Source of the DNA: Pyrenula massariospora
Lineage: Eukaryota > Ascomycota > Eurotiomycetes > Pyrenulales > Pyrenulaceae
DNA length: 64,000 nucleotides
Direction of reading: 5' to 3'
Assembly (NCBI GenBank): GCA_021030905.1
Contig: JAGFMI010000014.1
Span: forward strand, 434,001 to 498,000
Shown here: positions 57,221 to 64,000 of the stretch, piece after piece
How positions within the stretch are numbered: the first letter of the stretch is position 1
How the letters are laid out: each line of letters opens with the position of its first letter
Notes under the pieces: model-generated
The model's database searches: none
Told to the model about the DNA's origin: nothing
Seen by the model: the letters and a program-made list of their open reading frames with translations, nothing else
Made by a program: the position numbers and the translations under genes

Positions 57221-58284
57221 GGTCGATAGTAAGGTGATAGATGAGGGGAGATGAGGAGGTATTAATTTGAGAAAGAGCCAGCATTTCGAGCTTCTCCGGC
57301 TGAAAGGGTACACGCAGACTTTATATCCCCCGTGAATCTCGAAGCTGCGATCCCATGCCTGCTTATCCCCTCTTTAGACGCCCTGGCGTTGCGGCAGTAC
57401 GAGCAAAGTAGATATGCAATGCATAGAAGAGTCTAAACTGGTTAGACTTCCGCTGCAAGAGCATTTTCCAAATCCGGCTTGGTAGACTGTATCAATAGAA
57501 TCTTACTAGTAACGCTGAGGTGTTTCGTCAAATGCTTATCCGTTGGACTGACACGTCCTTGCTCTAGATGGCACTACGTAGTCATGAGATTGGCTTCTTT
57601 CAAGATCCTCGTATGTGGATATCGGGCAAAATCTATGACAAACCTAGAGACATTCTCTATTCATAGACGCAAGTACAAGTTCAAGGTTGAGCTGTAGGTG
57701 TTACGGACCTAATCTCTCGCGAGTACGCGTCTCGATGTCAGATGTTGGGGTGCATCTGGTTCTTAGTACTAATGCCCGCCGGCGTATATTGGATGCGTCA
57801 CGACTTCTGACACCCAGCATCGAAAGTAGCGGGCTCTTTCATAAGATTTGGGCAGCTCCCCACCGCAACAATCCAAGTGACTAATATGGAATTGAAAGAT
57901 AGATACGCTGGAGCCTTACGTGCCGTCGAGTACCTTCAGGCGACCCCGCACGGTCAGGCCGCGGGTTTACCAGGGATGTGATCCTTCACCTTGACCACCA
58001 CCGCACACCTTTAGGAGAGTTGGCTATTTTCTTGAGCTCTGTTCATACTAGATGGTTCAATTGTTGCCCGTCTTGCCCCTTGGTCCCTCTATCAGTGTCT
58101 CGCAGAGGCTGTTATCCCAGCTATCTTCTTATAAGACCCTAACGTACCCTGGCCTTAGGACTCTATCTACTTCTTACCGTTATCAGTCTGCACCGAGAAA
58201 GTTTTAGAATAATTGAACTGGGAGTATACTTACCGCTTCGCTGAAATCTGAGTGTCTCCGTAACCGCTGACAAGTCAAGCAAAT
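57221..58284. other. intergenic containing a short inverted-repeat element
   Basis: About 1.06 kb between divergent genes. It contains the element at 57736-57812; the rest has no gene. Confidence 0.5.
57736..57812. mobile_element. Short inverted-repeat element, copy B
   Basis: A 77-bp segment with the same ends (TGTCAGA ... TCTGACA) as copy A at 37552-37641 and clear similarity across most of its length (the 3' block GGCGTATATTG, CACGACTTCTGACA). It is shorter in the middle. It is non-coding and of unknown family; its occurrence 20 kb from copy A marks it as dispersed. Confidence 0.6.
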
Positions 58285-60526
58285 ATGAAGGTTGAGAAGA
58301 AACCAAAATTCACGCCGGAGTAGGTTCTGTAGGCATTTTCTAGAGCTTCGATTAATACTCGCCCTAGGCTCCTGATAGAGGCGGCTCGTTTTACCCCTCT
58401 TGTTCCTAGTCCGGACGGAAAAAGTGCTTTCTTCACATCTTCGTCATATTCGATTGCAGAAGACAAGGAGACAAAGGAGATACTTCTCAGAAATTTTGAA
58501 ACGGAGAAGACCTTTCCACTGTCGGACGACGCAGATATTAAAGAGCTGCAGTGGCTTGATGGCAATCAACTACTGTGGCTGAAGTCAACAGATGGCGGAA
58601 AGACGGAAGTCTGGATCGGCTACGTGGACAACGGCCTTCAGCGGTTTGTGTTCTATGAGATTACCAATGGACATGCGCTCACTATGGTCTAGGCAATACG
58701 TAGCGACCACTTTCGATGTACCTATCTCCAATGTCAAGGCAAAGCTTCTTCCGTCAGGGTCGATCTGCTTTGCATTTTGTGCTCTTGTCGATTCTAATGG
58801 TAACCTCTTCAACGCTGAGAAGGCACCGAAGCCTCCATCTTCTGCTCGAGAGTACGACTCAATCCGGGCCCGCTTCTGGGATACGTGGTTCACGAAGGAG
58901 CGATCTAGCTTGTGGTTTACTTACCTCAAAAACAGCTCAAGCTCTGATTACAACGTTGTAGAGCCTCCCTGCAATATTCTCGAGGGCACTCGACTTGAAT
59001 TTCCAGATGTTCAAAGCTCGGATCCCACAAACGGTGGCTCGTACGATCTAGGTGAAAATGGTATAATATTTGATGCGCTCGATCTGGAGAAAGTCAATCC
59101 CGCCATTCAGTTGTCGAATGATATGTGGTTTTACCCTTTCAATGAGTCGAAGAAGGAGCTGCACAAGGTCATTGTACCAGGATGGAATGGGGCGACGTCA
59201 GGGGGAAAGTTCGCACCAGATGGAAAACATTTCGCCTTTCTCAAGGCAAAGCACCGGAATTCAGTGACAGAATTCAACTCGATCTTCGTTGTGAGGCTGA
59301 CTGATATTGCGGAACACGCGGCAAGCCGTAGGAAGGTTCATGTGGCTCAGGTCTGTGCGGAGTCTTGGGATCGGTCGCCATCGTCACTGCTCTGGTCCAA
59401 CGATAGCAAACATCTCTACGTCACTGCAGATGATCGTGGGCGGGTTTCACTATTCCAAATAGACCTTCCCCCATTGTTGGCGAGCCTGAGGTATGCCTCC
59501 CCCAAATCCCTGTCAACACCCGGCAGTGTCTCTGCCGTATATCCCCTCGGCCATGCTCGGGAAGAGGTTCGCCTTCTTGTAAATGTCAGCACCATGACAG
59601 ATCCCGCGATATACGTTTTACTCGATCCAGCATCCGAAGAAGAGAGCCTCATTCCTACCCGCATGACTCATGGTCTCGATATGGGGCTGAATCACAAGCA
59701 AGTTTCAGAATTCTACTTCCGAAGTTCGGGAGATGGGGAGGAGTATGACGTTCAATCGTGGATCATGGTTCCCTCCAACTTTCAAAAAAACAAAAAATAT
59801 CCGGTTGCCTTCCTTATCCATGGGGGCCCAACTGGTTCATGGGCTGATACATGGTTTACACGATGGAACTCGGCAGTCTTTGCGGAACAAGGCTATGTCG
59901 TGATCATGCCCAACATCACGGGCTCCACGGGATTTGGTAAGAAGCTCACTGAAGCCGTCATCGGCAGTTGGGGTGGTCGTCCCTACAATGACATTGTTGC
60001 CTGTTTCGACTTTGTACGGGACAACCTGTCCTATGCCGACACTACCCGTGCTGTGGCTCTTGGTGCCAGCTATGGTGGCTACATGATGTACTGGCTCATG
60101 GGTCAACCTCTGGCCAAGGAGTTCAAAGCAGTCGTCTGCCACGATGGAATCTTCAGCCTCGCCAGCATCATTGGATCGGATGTTCCTGTTGGATTGGAGT
60201 ATATATTTGGCGGTATCCTTTGGGAGGATCCTAAGCTCTGGGATAAATACGACCCGTGTCGCTACACCAAGAATTGGAGCACCCCGATGCTTGTGATACA
60301 TAGTGATAGGGATTTCCGGTGTCCCATCAATGGCGGAATTGCTGCATTCAACACTTGTCAGATGAAGGGGATCCCGTCCCGGTTCCTCAACTTTCCCGAC
60401 GAGAATCATTTTGTGCAGAAGAGGGCGAATTCGCTCAAGTGGCATTACACGGTTCTGGGCTGGATCAACCATTGGACGGGGAACGAAGGAGGTGTGCGGT
60501 TACCGCCCGCGGTGAGTGAGCCTTGA
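58285..60526 (+). CDS. Dipeptidyl-peptidase V-like serine peptidase (S9C)
   Basis: Exons 58285-58319, 58368-58643 and 58693-60526 keep frame and give 714 residues. The first exon is only 12 codons (MKVEKKPKFTPE) and was inferred from the conserved KFTPELLIEAARF junction; the intron is 48 bp (GTAGGT donor). The N-terminal half is a beta-propeller (SAFFTSSSYSIAEDKETKEI, LLWLKSTDGGKTEVWIGYVD), the C-terminal half an alpha/beta hydrolase with HGGPTGSW, the nucleophile motif GASYGGYM (Ser563), the acid in VIHSDRDFRCP and the base in FPDENHFV. The family removes dipeptides from protein N-termini. No signal peptide is visible, so it is probably cytosolic, unlike secreted DPP V of Aspergillus. It lies 2 kb upstream of a Kex2-repeat peptide gene. 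Confidence 0.88.
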
Positions 60527-62537
60527 TGGAGGTCTGGAGGATGAATCCTATGGGTCGATTTTTTTCGTGGTCACATGATTGTTGGGGCTTTGTTTCTAGA
60601 AATGAGCCTCTTTTCGAGCCCGCATCCTGCGGTGTGCCTCGGCTAAGCTAAGCGGGATGTCTCGCGTAAAAAGGATCTCGGATTTCCCGGGGCAGGTAAG
60701 CTTCCTTTGAGGCTTTGATATTTTATCCAACGGGATCGTACGGTACGAGGGAGGATAAGATGGCCAAGCATAAAGAAAGGGGGGCGGAATTTGGAGATAC
60801 CGCATTGCCTAGACAGAAAAGGTGATCGGGTTCTCGTCCAATCCCATGGTCCGTGCTAGAAATAGCATCGATCGTCAAGCGAGGTGCGAAATCTGACATC
60901 TGCAGATTCACCCAATGTAGAATCAAAATTGGTCTCCCCCTCTCAATGGAGTATGCATCACGAGCTCCTGATGCCTAAGACGTCTTAAAGATAGTGATGC
61001 ATAGTCATTCTTAAACAACGGTCACACAACGCATTCCACCCTCTCTTATTCTTAAACATAGTCATGCGTGCATTTCCACCCTCGGTCTTTCTCACTCTCC
61101 CCATCCCCCCATCCCCCCCCTTTCAGAAACCCAGTTCCCCATCATCCCGAGCCATCGTCCAGCAGTCGTCCAACGTCATCCAATCTCGTGTGCGCCTTCC
61201 CACCCACTTTCCTGGCTCGGCACCGCGCCTGCTTACCTTATGCCCGCCCACGTCCCGCCCCCTGACCGGCTTGGGGGCCGCGCCACGGATCCATTGTAGA
61301 GTTTTGTTGGCTGGTGCCTGAACCAACTTGGGTGTGCGCTACTACCATGTGGGCCCGCGGAGGGGGACCGTCGTCGCTTACTCGAAAAAGTTTTCGGGTT
61401 CCTAGGGCTGTTTTCCGGGGGAATGGTAGAGACAGAGACGGCACGGGGGATGGGATGCGGGCGCAGGGTTTTGGGATCAGATACGTAAGTTGACCTGCCC
61501 GCTTTGTGTACCCGAAAGAGCAATCGAGGCCAGGTACGTGATGGAAGGAAGGGGAAAGGAATGCGTCGAATCGACATGGAAGAACCTATCTGATCCTTTG
61601 GGGGCTTGTCGGGGGGGCTTGGCTGTGCGATATCTTAAGGTAGTCCGATGGGAGATGGCTTGGGGCATGGAAGGTTGCCGAGTCGTCTTGTCTCTACACT
61701 ATCTAGCCCTTTTTCGCCCTCCCCTCACGTGGGTGCCATGCACCCTGATATCCCCCTGACGTGCAGGGCTTGCAGTGATGGCTGGAAGGTTCCGTACCGC
61801 GTTGTTCGGGTGGAATTATTGATTGGATTCCTGTACACCCATTGGCGGTCGTGGCGGAAACGTTGTGTGTAACGGGGTTTTCTTGGTCATGATGGACTAT
61901 AACATACCTTCACACACACACCTACGGCGCTGCTCCCTCTCCCATTGCGTCACTCGTTTGCGGTCTCCCCCCTTCCAGGCAACATTTTTTTCTGAGTCAT
62001 CCATCCCATTGCTTGCACCTCACCTGACCAGCAGTGCCCGAGCCAAAAGGAAAAGGCAAAAGCCCGAAACGGCATATGAAGACGACAACGAGGGAGGGAT
62101 GGGGCTTTGAAATTCCCGGCCCCCAGCCTAATCCGCGATGCTAGGCACTACACCACACCTTATCCCGCCAAGGGTCAGACTTACCTGATCACCGGAGGCA
62201 ATGAATGTGAGAGTCCCTCGGGGCCAGCTTCTGGATCTAGTCGCCTGGGCAGTGATTGGGCTTGGGCTTTTTCCAACATTGAGGGATGGGGGCGGCTCGC
62301 GGGGTTGATTAGGGCATGACTATATGAGTTATCAGGAAGGGGATCGTGGACTTATATAAGGCGACGGTCCTGGGTTGTTGAGTTTCCTAATTTACGCCGC
62401 AAGATCTAGATCGCAAAAACAGACCATTTTCTTGAATTCGTCACTATCGTTGACTTTCCCAGTTTGATCATCTACAAGGATATATTTTCATCTCTACAAG
62501 CTTTTTCTACAACCTGTCCGTCTCCAAATCGAACAAG
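60527..62537. other. Intergenic region upstream of the repeat-peptide gene
   Basis: About 2 kb. No gene. Close to 62353 is a TATA-like TATATAAG, about 185 bp before the next ATG. The region 61050-61400 is pyrimidine-rich on the plus strand and the stretch near 62100-62160 looks like a degenerate tRNA-like sequence on the minus strand (see rejected items). Confidence 0.5.
62353..62360 (+). promoter_or_regulatory. TATA box of the repeat-peptide gene
   Basis: TATATAAG about 185 bp upstream of the ATG at 62538; the leader in between is AT-rich. Typical TATA spacing in fungi is looser than in animals, so this is likely but unproven. Confidence 0.5.
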
Positions 62538-62834
62538 ATGCAGCTGTCCACCCTCCTCTCCTTCCTCCTCCTACCAGTCACCCTGACCCTCGCAGCTCCT
62601 GCCCCAAGACCAATGTACCTGTCCAGCCCAAAGGCGGCAGTCGAAACCGATCCTGAGCCTGGGACGAGCACACCGCCGAGAGACCCCATGTACCTCCACG
62701 GCGACGAGACAACCCAATCGCGAAGAAGTCCCATGTACCTCCACGGCGACGACACAACCTCATCGCGAAGAAGTCCCATGTACCTCCCAGATTACAGCGA
62801 GGGTACCGATGGTGATGCGACCACACCCCAATGA
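62538..62834 (+). CDS. Secreted precursor with Kex2-type repeated peptides (RiPP/KEP-like)
   Basis: A 98-codon intronless frame. Residues 1-20 are a signal peptide (MQLSTLLSFLLLPVTLTLAA). Then a 15-residue unit repeats: about residues 48-62 (RDPMYLHGDETTQSR), 63-77 (RSPMYLHGDDTTSSR) and a partial at 78-90 (RSPMYLPDY), with a divergent PMYL at 25-28. Arg-Arg pairs at 62-63 and 77-78 are Kex2 cleavage sites, so processing should release similar Tyr-bearing peptides of about 13 residues. The architecture is that of Kex2-processed repeat proteins, which include ustiloxin/phomopsin-type RiPP precursors and signalling peptides. No UstYa (DUF3328) oxidase lies in the visible flank, so the product may be linear or its modifying genes lie right of the window. 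Repeats are nearly identical at DNA level (45-bp units). Confidence 0.8.
   Translation: MQLSTLLSFLLLPVTLTLAAPAPRPMYLSSPKAAVETDPEPGTSTPPRDPMYLHGDETTQSRRSPMYLHGDDTTSSRRSPMYLPDYSEGTDGDATTPQ
62673..62800 (+). repeat. 45-bp tandem repeat in the precursor gene
   Basis: Two full units and a truncated third, each starting with the AGA codon of the Arg before (D/S)PMYL; the middle parts TGTACCTCCACGGCGACGA are identical between the first two. Such near-identity suggests recent expansion or gene-conversion upkeep. Confidence 0.8.
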
Positions 62835-63555
62835 AACTCCCAATAGGTGTATGTTTCGGCGGGTGGTCGTCGAAGCGGTTAGGGCCTTGACGAGGATTTC
62901 TCTATTTGGAATTTTCTTTGTCGACATGATACTAGGGGTATGAGTTGGTCAGTTATGGGTCTGTACAGCACACGGGAATCTGCATTGGCGCTGCAGGCCG
63001 GCGTGGTTGGGATATGTACAGCGGGCGTTACCCTGGAAAGAACCTTTTCCAGATAGCGACGGCGTTTTTGCATTGCTTGGAAAGATTGGGAGGGATATGA
63101 TAGGCGGATGGTCTACGCTCGTGAAGTTGCTGGAAGACGCGAAAACTGATATCATATAACAGCGGTCGCTAGAAATCTGAGCGCGGTGAAGCCGTGCAGC
63201 TAGAGAGGGGGACCACTTGAGTAGGTCGATGGCTTTTTGTTCATACGGTCCTTTTCTTGTATATATTGCAGCATCGTATGGATATTTGGCTTAAAGACGA
63301 GGGTACTTTGTCTAGTCTCTACTCGTGTCGCCGAAATCATTCATCCATGACGTGGATCCTGTGATCCCATTATCAAGCAATTAGTCTGCGTAGAGGGAGT
63401 CGTCTCTCTGGAAGATGAGCCTTTCTCATAAGCGCAGCGTCAAAACGTTTCTGACGAGCAGCACCCACAGTTCAGAAGGTACTTGAAAGGGTTCCATACA
63501 CGTGACTTTGTGCCTACGTCTCGGCCAGCATTACTACTAAGAACAGAAGACAGTG
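62835..63555. other. intergenic, 3' of repeat-peptide gene
   Basis: About 720 bp between converging genes. No gene was seen. Confidence 0.5.
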
Positions 63556-64000
63556 TCACCCTAGAATTTTTGTTACCTCTGGGAGAACCTCCTCGGCAGG
63601 TTGGCTACACCTGACGCCGAGCCTATCGTTTACTGGTTGGTCATCAGATCCTGCGAAGAATCCCTCTTCTTTCCGGACGCCCCCGAGATTTAAGATGCCA
63701 ATCGGCATTTCTCGGTCGTGCGCCCTCTTCACCAGACGCCACGCGGAATATGTCGCCAGGCTACTTCCAACTACCAAGATTCTCCCCGCTTCGTCAACTG
63801 CCTCTTCCGCTGCTTCCTTGACAATCTCTGGTATTGATTCGCCGAACATTATCACATTTGGCTTGAGAATGCCAGCTGTCGAGGTCGGTGACCAGGCGCC
63901 GTCGGCGTCAATCTCCACTTTTCCTATCCTCCCATCACCACGCATTGGCGGATTAGCTAGGCACTTTGGGCAGGCTGGATACCTGAATGTTGTGTAAGGG
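63556..64000 (-). CDS. Sirtuin, class II (SIRT4-like), C-terminal part; 5' end outside window
   Basis: The minus-strand frame is open from the right edge to the stop at 63556; only about 147 C-terminal residues are visible. It shows PYTTFRYPACPKCLANPP, a CxxC zinc-binding pair, then GILKPNVIMFGESIP (the nucleotide-binding segment after the zinc region), ILVVGSSLATYSAWRLV (GSSL, the NAD-ribose contact) and IGILNLGG. These are features of NAD-dependent deacylases of the Sir2 family, and the FGESIPE plus GSSLATYSAWRLV form matches the mitochondrial SIRT4-type group. Substrate and location are inferred by family. The catalytic His is on the unseen part. Confidence 0.87.
   Translation of the reverse strand, partial: PYTTFRYPACPKCLANPPMRGDGRIGKVEIDADGAWSPTSTAGILKPNVIMFGESIPEIVKEAAEEAVDEAGRILVVGSSLATYSAWRLVKRAHDREMPIGILNLGGVRKEEGFFAGSDDQPVNDRLGVRCSQPAEEVLPEVTKILG

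What the first reader, a model, noticed from the sequence alone, without database searches (positions are those of the whole stretch)
62538..62834. Kex2-repeat secreted peptide precursor, candidate new RiPP or signalling peptide
Signal peptide followed by near-identical 15-residue repeats (PMYLHGD(D/E)TT) separated by RR pairs is the layout of Kex2-processed precursors. The Tyr-Leu core could be a cyclisation site as in dikaritins. I do not recognise this core sequence from described RiPPs. It is alone in the visible flank; the right edge is only about 1.2 kb away, so partner genes could be just beyond (only a sirtuin is seen).
Basis: partly seen in the sequence, partly recalled or inferred. 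Interest (0 to 1): 0.75.

Follow-up and report, generated by a model that had tools for sequence, protein, structure and literature searches.

The report
Small secreted fungal peptide precursor
A fungus carries a small gene whose secreted product looks built to be cut into several short, similar peptides, much like yeast mating-factor precursors, but no relative or function was found and nothing nearby suggests a cyclic-peptide toxin.

Summary
The reading frame at 62538-62834 is really there. It encodes 98 aa with a signal-peptide-like start and four copies of PMYL, two of them in near-identical 15-residue repeats. Each PMYL follows an arginine directly or one residue later: APR-PMYL, PPRD-PMYL, RRS-PMYL, RRS-PMYL. 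Signal peptidase, Kex2, and then Ste13-type trimming of X-Pro pairs would give four peptides that all start MYL and have net negative charge. Matches to kexin P-domain and DPPIV families are in the genome. Codon use, a TATA motif and shuffles support a real gene, each modestly.

It works like a Kex2-processed repeat protein (KEP), but with two dibasic sites it falls below both published KEP cut-offs. The dikaritin/RiPP reading is not supported: the nearest UstYa match is about 90 kb away. No homologue scored in a 5.8-billion-protein search. An alpha-pheromone role is not excluded: a Ste2-type receptor match exists, and my pattern searches recognised no canonical pheromone gene. Processing and function are inferred, not shown. 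KEPs are common and their functions largely unknown, so interest is modest.

The parts
62538..62834 (+). 98-aa precursor ORF, no intron needed
   Evidence: ATG to TGA ORF; its synonymous codon score was reached by 41 of 5000 background recodings
62538..62594 (+). signal peptide, residues 1-19, predicted cleavage TLA|AP
   Evidence: hydropathy profile only; inferred
62595..62612 (+). APAPRP, three X-Pro dipeptides between the predicted signal cleavage and the first MYL
   Evidence: translation; trimming by a Ste13-type enzyme is inferred
62613..62681 (+). unit 1, MYLSSPKAAVETDPEPGTSTPPR, diverged copy
   Evidence: its PMYL uses CCA and CTG where the other three units use CCC and CTC
62682..62726 (+). 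unit 2, DPMYLHGDETTQS + RR
62727..62771 (+). unit 3, SPMYLHGDDTTSS + RR
62772..62831 (+). unit 4, SPMYLPDYSEGTDGDATTPQ, C-terminal
62721..62726 (+). Kex2-type RR site 1
   Evidence: residues 62-63
62766..62771 (+). Kex2-type RR site 2
   Evidence: residues 77-78
62353..62359 (+). TATATAA, candidate TATA box 185 bases before the ATG
   Evidence: the only hit to TATATAA, TATAAA or TATATAT on the + strand between 60601 and 62538; TATATAA occurs 3 times in the whole window, both strands; no promoter test was run

Best explanation
A secreted precursor of several linear peptides. Signal peptidase removes residues 1-19 in the ER. In the Golgi a Kex2-type protease cuts after RR (two sites) and probably after PPR, a Kex1-type enzyme trims the basic residues, and a Ste13-type dipeptidyl aminopeptidase removes the X-Pro pairs (AP-AP-RP, DP, SP, SP). 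The products would be MYLSSPK..., MYLHGDETTQS, MYLHGDDTTSS and MYLPDYSEG...: a constant MYL N-terminus with a variable, net-acidic remainder. They most likely act outside the cell as signals, to the fungus itself or to a partner. Shown: the sequence layout, the four units, and matches to the protease families in the genome. Inferred: signal cleavage, every proteolytic step, expression and the signalling role.
For: ORF and units. PMYL is kept in unit 1 although what follows has diverged, with 2 synonymous and 0 non-synonymous differences in its PMYL. Codon, TATA and shuffle support. One P_proprotein (kexin-type) match, C9:270925, with one stop inside it, as an intron would give (the catalytic domain was not checked), and two DPPIV_N matches (Ste13 and DPPIV not told apart). 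Le Marquer et al. (PMC6339444, passages) describe Ste13 as taking XA or XP after the Kex2 site and call KEPs with this signature good candidates for peptide hormones. PMC9769878 (passages) reports that alpha-pheromone-like KEPs are processed in basidiomycetes.
Against: Only two dibasic sites; units 1 and 2 would need cleavage after PR or by trimming alone, and in unit 1 proline follows the R. The X-Pro after RR could simply be part of a conserved PMYL. No homologue, so no cross-species conservation. Units 2 and 3 differ only by non-synonymous changes. The codon test is weak: the +2 frame scores nearly as well, 0.039 against 0.046. The residues after RR are not the acidic ones that Kex2 favours (PMC2515848, abstract). 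Kex1 was not searched. No expression data.
Confidence: 0.57

Rival explanations
1. It is this lineage's alpha-type mating pheromone precursor with an unusual core, read by a Ste2-type receptor.
For: X-Pro after RR, a signature that Le Marquer et al. (section 8 read) call generally dedicated to alpha pheromones in Ascomycota. A Ste2 family match at C7:144318, E 7.1e-34. No canonical pheromone gene recognised: the 3 exact WCxxxGQxC hits (contexts), the 24 in-frame hits among 50 of 51 looser hits read and the 11 CxxxGQGC hits showed by eye no repeated or single core neatly bounded by Kex2 sites behind a secretion signal.
Against: No Cys, Trp or GQ in the chain; the pheromone of two other Eurotiomycete genera is WCTRPGQGC (PMC3464258, passages). 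The constant part here is N-terminal. The pattern hits exceed their backward controls (51 against 26; 11 against 6; 3 against 3), contexts were judged by eye without a signal-peptide predictor, and other pheromone forms would be missed. One hit (L069) lies in a secreted-looking 187-aa frame, though without Kex2 sites beside it. The Ste2 frame matched no solved structure at E <= 0.001.
Confidence: 0.12
2. An ordinary small secreted acidic protein (wall-associated or effector-like) with a short tandem duplication; the RR pairs are not used as cleavage sites.
For: Only two dibasic sites; tandem duplication with only non-synonymous differences; orphan.
Against: PMYL persists in units 1 and 4, whose surroundings differ, and in all four units follows an arginine directly or one residue later.
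Confidence: 0.18
3. A dikaritin-like RiPP whose Tyr is cyclised by a UstYa enzyme encoded elsewhere in the genome.
For: Tyr in every unit; 88 UstYa matches genome-wide. PMC7329392 (passages): Tyr occurs in 65.6% of repeats of KEPs with a DUF3328 neighbour against 38.2% without.
Against: Nearest UstYa match about 90 kb away, whereas the same paper's abstract gives an average distance of 3.09 genes; no RiPP-type domain in 19 neighbouring ORFs scanned. The Ste13 signature is reported absent from precursors of the cyclic peptides (PMC6339444, passage).
Confidence: 0.06
4. Not a gene: a chance ORF over a short DNA duplication.
For: No homologue; weak codon signal.
Against: Signal-like start, TATA motif 185 bases upstream, four in-frame units, 0 of 4773 shuffled ORFs alike.
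Confidence: 0.07

Closest known systems
Kex2-processed repeat proteins (KEPs; Le Marquer 2019, Umemura 2020)
   Same: Signal-like start, near-identical short repeats separated by RR, short chain, no DUF3328 neighbour (as for most KEPs: 22% have one, PMC7329392 abstract)
   Different: Only 2 dibasic sites and 2 near-identical repeats, below both survey cut-offs; mixed PR and RR junctions; core not among the conserved cores named in PMC6339444 section 10
Ascomycete alpha-pheromone precursors
   Same: Kex2 site followed by X-Pro/X-Ala dipeptides, several copies, unmodified linear product expected
   Different: No WCxxxGQxC-type core; constant part is N-terminal; no pro-region between signal peptide and first unit
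Dikaritin precursors (ustiloxin, phomopsin, asperipin-2a)
   Same: Signal-like start, Kex2-separated repeats with Tyr
   Different: No UstYa match within 89 kb; no tyrosinase or methyltransferase domain among the ORFs scanned; no YxI or EDYxI core; X-Pro signature present

Membership tests
KEP (Le Marquer pipeline) | At least four fragments after cutting at KR/RR (else KK), at least three of them similar | tested here: not met
   Cutting at RR gives 3 fragments of 44, 15 and 20 residues (the script's 21 counts the stop sign); criterion read in PMC6339444 section 24
KEP (Umemura pipeline) | At least three tandem repeats of 8 aa or more between KR/KK/RK/RR sites | tested here: not met
   Two RR sites only; criterion in a passage of PMC7329392
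KEP (general sense) | Secretion signal | tested here: inconclusive
   Hydropathy only; no signal-peptide predictor
KEP (general sense) | Repeated units bounded by Kex2-type sites | tested here: inconclusive
   Four PMYL units, two after RR (usual Kex2 sites) but two after PR or PRD, which are less certain sites
KEP (general sense) | Peptides released in vivo | not testable with these tools
   Needs peptidomics
Ascomycete alpha-pheromone | Ste13 signature (XA/XP) after the Kex2 site | tested here: met
   SP after both RR sites, DP after PPR
Ascomycete alpha-pheromone | Class-typical core such as WCxxxGQxC | tested here: not met
   No Cys or Trp in the precursor
Ascomycete alpha-pheromone | Recognition by Ste2 | not testable with these tools
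   A Ste2 family match exists; binding unknown
Dikaritin RiPP | UstYa/DUF3328 gene close by | tested here: not met
   0 of 88 matches within 89 kb
Dikaritin RiPP | Tyrosinase or methyltransferase in the cluster | tested here: inconclusive
   No such Pfam hit in 19 neighbouring ORFs scanned, but these were chosen from longer ORF lists and read without introns
Dikaritin RiPP | Modified, cyclised Tyr | not testable with these tools
   Needs mass spectrometry

The most novel reading that the evidence does not exclude
A non-canonical alpha-type pheromone or self-signalling peptide hormone of an under-studied Eurotiomycete lineage, with a new core of MYL plus acidic tail matured by Kex2 and Ste13.
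Probability: 0.13. Interest if true: 0.6.

Novelty: new variant of a known kind. Interest (0 to 1): 0.3.

Why it matters
If processed as proposed, it is a peptide signal that both published KEP surveys would miss by their stated cut-offs, so other short precursors of this type may be uncounted. In a genome with a Ste2 match and no canonical alpha-pheromone recognised by my patterns, it gives a directly testable ligand candidate. If it is just another KEP-like gene of unknown role, it is one among thousands.

Tried and rejected
RiPP cluster: UstYa over the whole genome and Pfam on 19 neighbouring ORFs; rejected. Those 19 are the dipeptidyl-peptidase-like ORF, 8 more from the left side, so 9 of the 21 frames listed for 30000-62000, and 10 of the 51 frames listed for the right side; 7 of the 19 had no domain at E <= 0.001.

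Homologues: the 98-aa protein (10 candidates, none at E <= 10), a repeat-extended version to admit longer proteins (80 candidates, none), and the own genome (one chance-level second place, E 0.295, with a stop inside). As a control the neighbour 58592-60526 gave 2934 matches among 7999 candidates in the same database (best 120 listed), the best from Pyrenula ochraceoflavens at 62% identity. Fungal proteins are therefore held, though small unannotated ORFs may not be.

Canonical alpha-pheromone: three patterns and one typed query, contexts read; none convincing. The typed query gave one place at E 0.25 in a 706-aa frame, not followed. The hit with KRR just upstream lies antisense to a 570-aa frame. 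In one search, 50 of 51 hits were read; C33:931270 was not fetched, and its matched length of 26 bases is out of frame.

rRNA for identification: none (39 of 1309 candidates scored). tRNA in the window: none. Rfam: nothing in 58000-64000. Literature: the core strings SPMYL, PMYLHG, MYLHGD, RRSPMYL and DPMYLHGD occur in 0 papers held; other searches are. The lichen papers PMC12048977 and PMC12711211 (passages) gave nothing on this peptide. Supplementary KEP tables could not be read (0 look-ups allowed), so a relative listed there is not excluded. Structure prediction was not run: the products are short and probably disordered.

Full report
What is there. The ORF at 62538-62834 (+) encodes MQLSTLLSFLLLPVTLTLA|APAPRPMYLSSPKAAVETDPEPGTSTPPRDPMYLHGDETTQSRRSPMYLHGDDTTSSRRSPMYLPDYSEGTDGDATTPQ (the bar marks my predicted signal cleavage). 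The window lies at C5:434001-498000 of a 37.8 Mb genome in 33 contigs. The neighbour protein 58592-60526 is closest to Pyrenula ochraceoflavens (62% identity over 95% of the query; next Xylographa pallens at 48%). Pyrenula is Eurotiomycetes, Chaetothyriomycetidae, Pyrenulales, and Xylographa is Lecanoromycetes. The organism is thus probably a Eurotiomycete near Pyrenulales, on the strength of one protein.

Anatomy. PMYL occurs at residues 25, 50, 65 and 80. The residues just before it are APR, PRD, RRS and RRS. Units 2 and 3 are near-identical at the DNA level; across their 15 codons they differ in three, all non-synonymous. Unit 1 differs from the others within PMYL only by synonymous codons (CCA for CCC, CTG for CTC), although what follows is unrelated. 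Shuffling residues 20-48 gave PMYL in 75 of 200,000 trials. The constant element is therefore R-(x)-PMYL, not the whole 15-residue repeat.

Is it a gene? For: a TATATAA 185 bases before the ATG (3 in the whole window, both strands) and a synonymous codon score reached by 41 of 5000 background recodings. Also a filter passed only by this ORF among 575 ORFs from 260,460 bases, and by 0 of 4773 in 30 shuffled windows. That filter was set after seeing the ORF. Against: the +2 frame scores nearly as well on codons (0.039 against 0.046), the nine training frames were chosen as long open frames rather than annotated genes (their scores are 0.006-0.064), and GC at third positions is 0.65 against 0.53 in them. 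There is no homologue and no expression evidence.

How it would work. Kex2 sites in fungi are generally KR or RR, Kex1 trims, and Ste13 removes XA or XP pairs (PMC6339444, passages). Applied here, every unit comes out starting MYL: signal cleavage leaves AP-AP-RP-MYL, PPR leaves DP-MYL, and RR leaves SP-MYL twice. The RR steps are ordinary. The PR steps are less certain: Pro-Arg cleavage by Kex2 is recalled from yeast killer toxin and comes from no call, and unit 1 could be freed by X-Pro trimming alone. Net charges of the four predicted products are -1, -2, -2 and -4. Kex2 was found to favour acidic residues at P1', P2' and P4' (PMC2515848, abstract); the RR sites here have S, P and Y there, so they are not optimal by that measure.

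Machinery and receptor. The genome has one P_proprotein (kexin-type) match, with one stop inside it, two DPPIV_N matches and one Ste2 match. The kexin catalytic domain and Kex1 were not checked, and Ste13 was not told apart from DPPIV. A 291-residue stretch of the Ste2 frame matched no solved structure at E <= 0.001. In a mushroom, KEP peptides were still present in the kex knockouts made (PMC9769878, passages), so even a real KEP need not depend on a single kexin.

Neighbourhood. To the right: sirtuin, cation efflux, FGGY kinase, exportin-T and a CCCH/Torus zinc finger. To the left: a dipeptidyl-peptidase-V-like S9 enzyme, zinc alcohol dehydrogenase, PP2C, a short-chain dehydrogenase and a DUF7730 protein. 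Seven of the 19 ORFs scanned had no domain (ORFs read without introns and chosen from longer lists). The nearest UstYa match is at C5:586632, 89.8 kb beyond the gene; no UstYa match lies to its left on this contig.

Pheromone check. WCxxxGQxC gave 3 hits (backward control 3). A looser WC...G[QE]xC gave 51 (control 26), of which 50 were read and 24 were in frame. CxxxGQGC gave 11 (control 6). By eye, from the residues around each hit, none looks like a secreted, Kex2-bounded pheromone; one CxxxGQGC hit lies in a secreted-looking 187-aa frame without Kex2 sites beside it (L069). This does not exclude a pheromone of another form or one that is missing from the assembly.

Known or new. KEPs are widespread: 7878 in 1345 of 1461 strains, about 5 per ascomycete strain, 2560 of them stand-alone (PMC7329392, passages and part 1 of section 6). 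This gene is under both survey thresholds. Le Marquer et al. say the minimum of three repeats was set because it cut false positives, and that some pheromone precursors also fall below usual repeat numbers (section 24). In Paracoccidioides and Histoplasma the precursor holds one copy (PMC3464258, passages; Paracoccidioides is Eurotiomycetes, Histoplasma by recall). The core strings are in none of the papers held. In the same mushroom, six KEP knockouts gave no apparent phenotype (PMC9769878, passages), so an orphan precursor of this type is expected rather than startling.

Verdict. A plausible, probably real, perhaps lineage-specific secreted peptide precursor that works like a KEP with an alpha-pheromone-like Ste13 signature. 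The dikaritin reading fails its main testable feature, a UstYa neighbour. A mating or self-signalling role is the most interesting open reading.

Noticed in passing
G000 whole genome, e.g. C32:497052, C1:37880, C15:283806, C30:230015: 88 UstYa (PF11807) exon-level matches, several close together, e.g. C1:37880 and C1:39338, C30:230015 and C30:231832; a genome that may hold several dikaritin-type clusters, none near this gene.
   Followed up: no
window 58592-60526: Dipeptidyl-peptidase-V-like S9 enzyme about 2 kb upstream on the same strand; best match Pyrenula ochraceoflavens, 62% identity. The first part of that 710-aa relative is not in the listed ORF, so an upstream exon is likely.
   Followed up: partly
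G000:C7:144318-145082: Ste2 family match present, while no canonical WCxxxGQxC pheromone gene was recognised by the patterns used.
   Followed up: partly
G000 assembly: No 5.8S rRNA match (39 of 1309 candidates scored), so the rDNA is missing from the assembly or was not detected.
   Followed up: no
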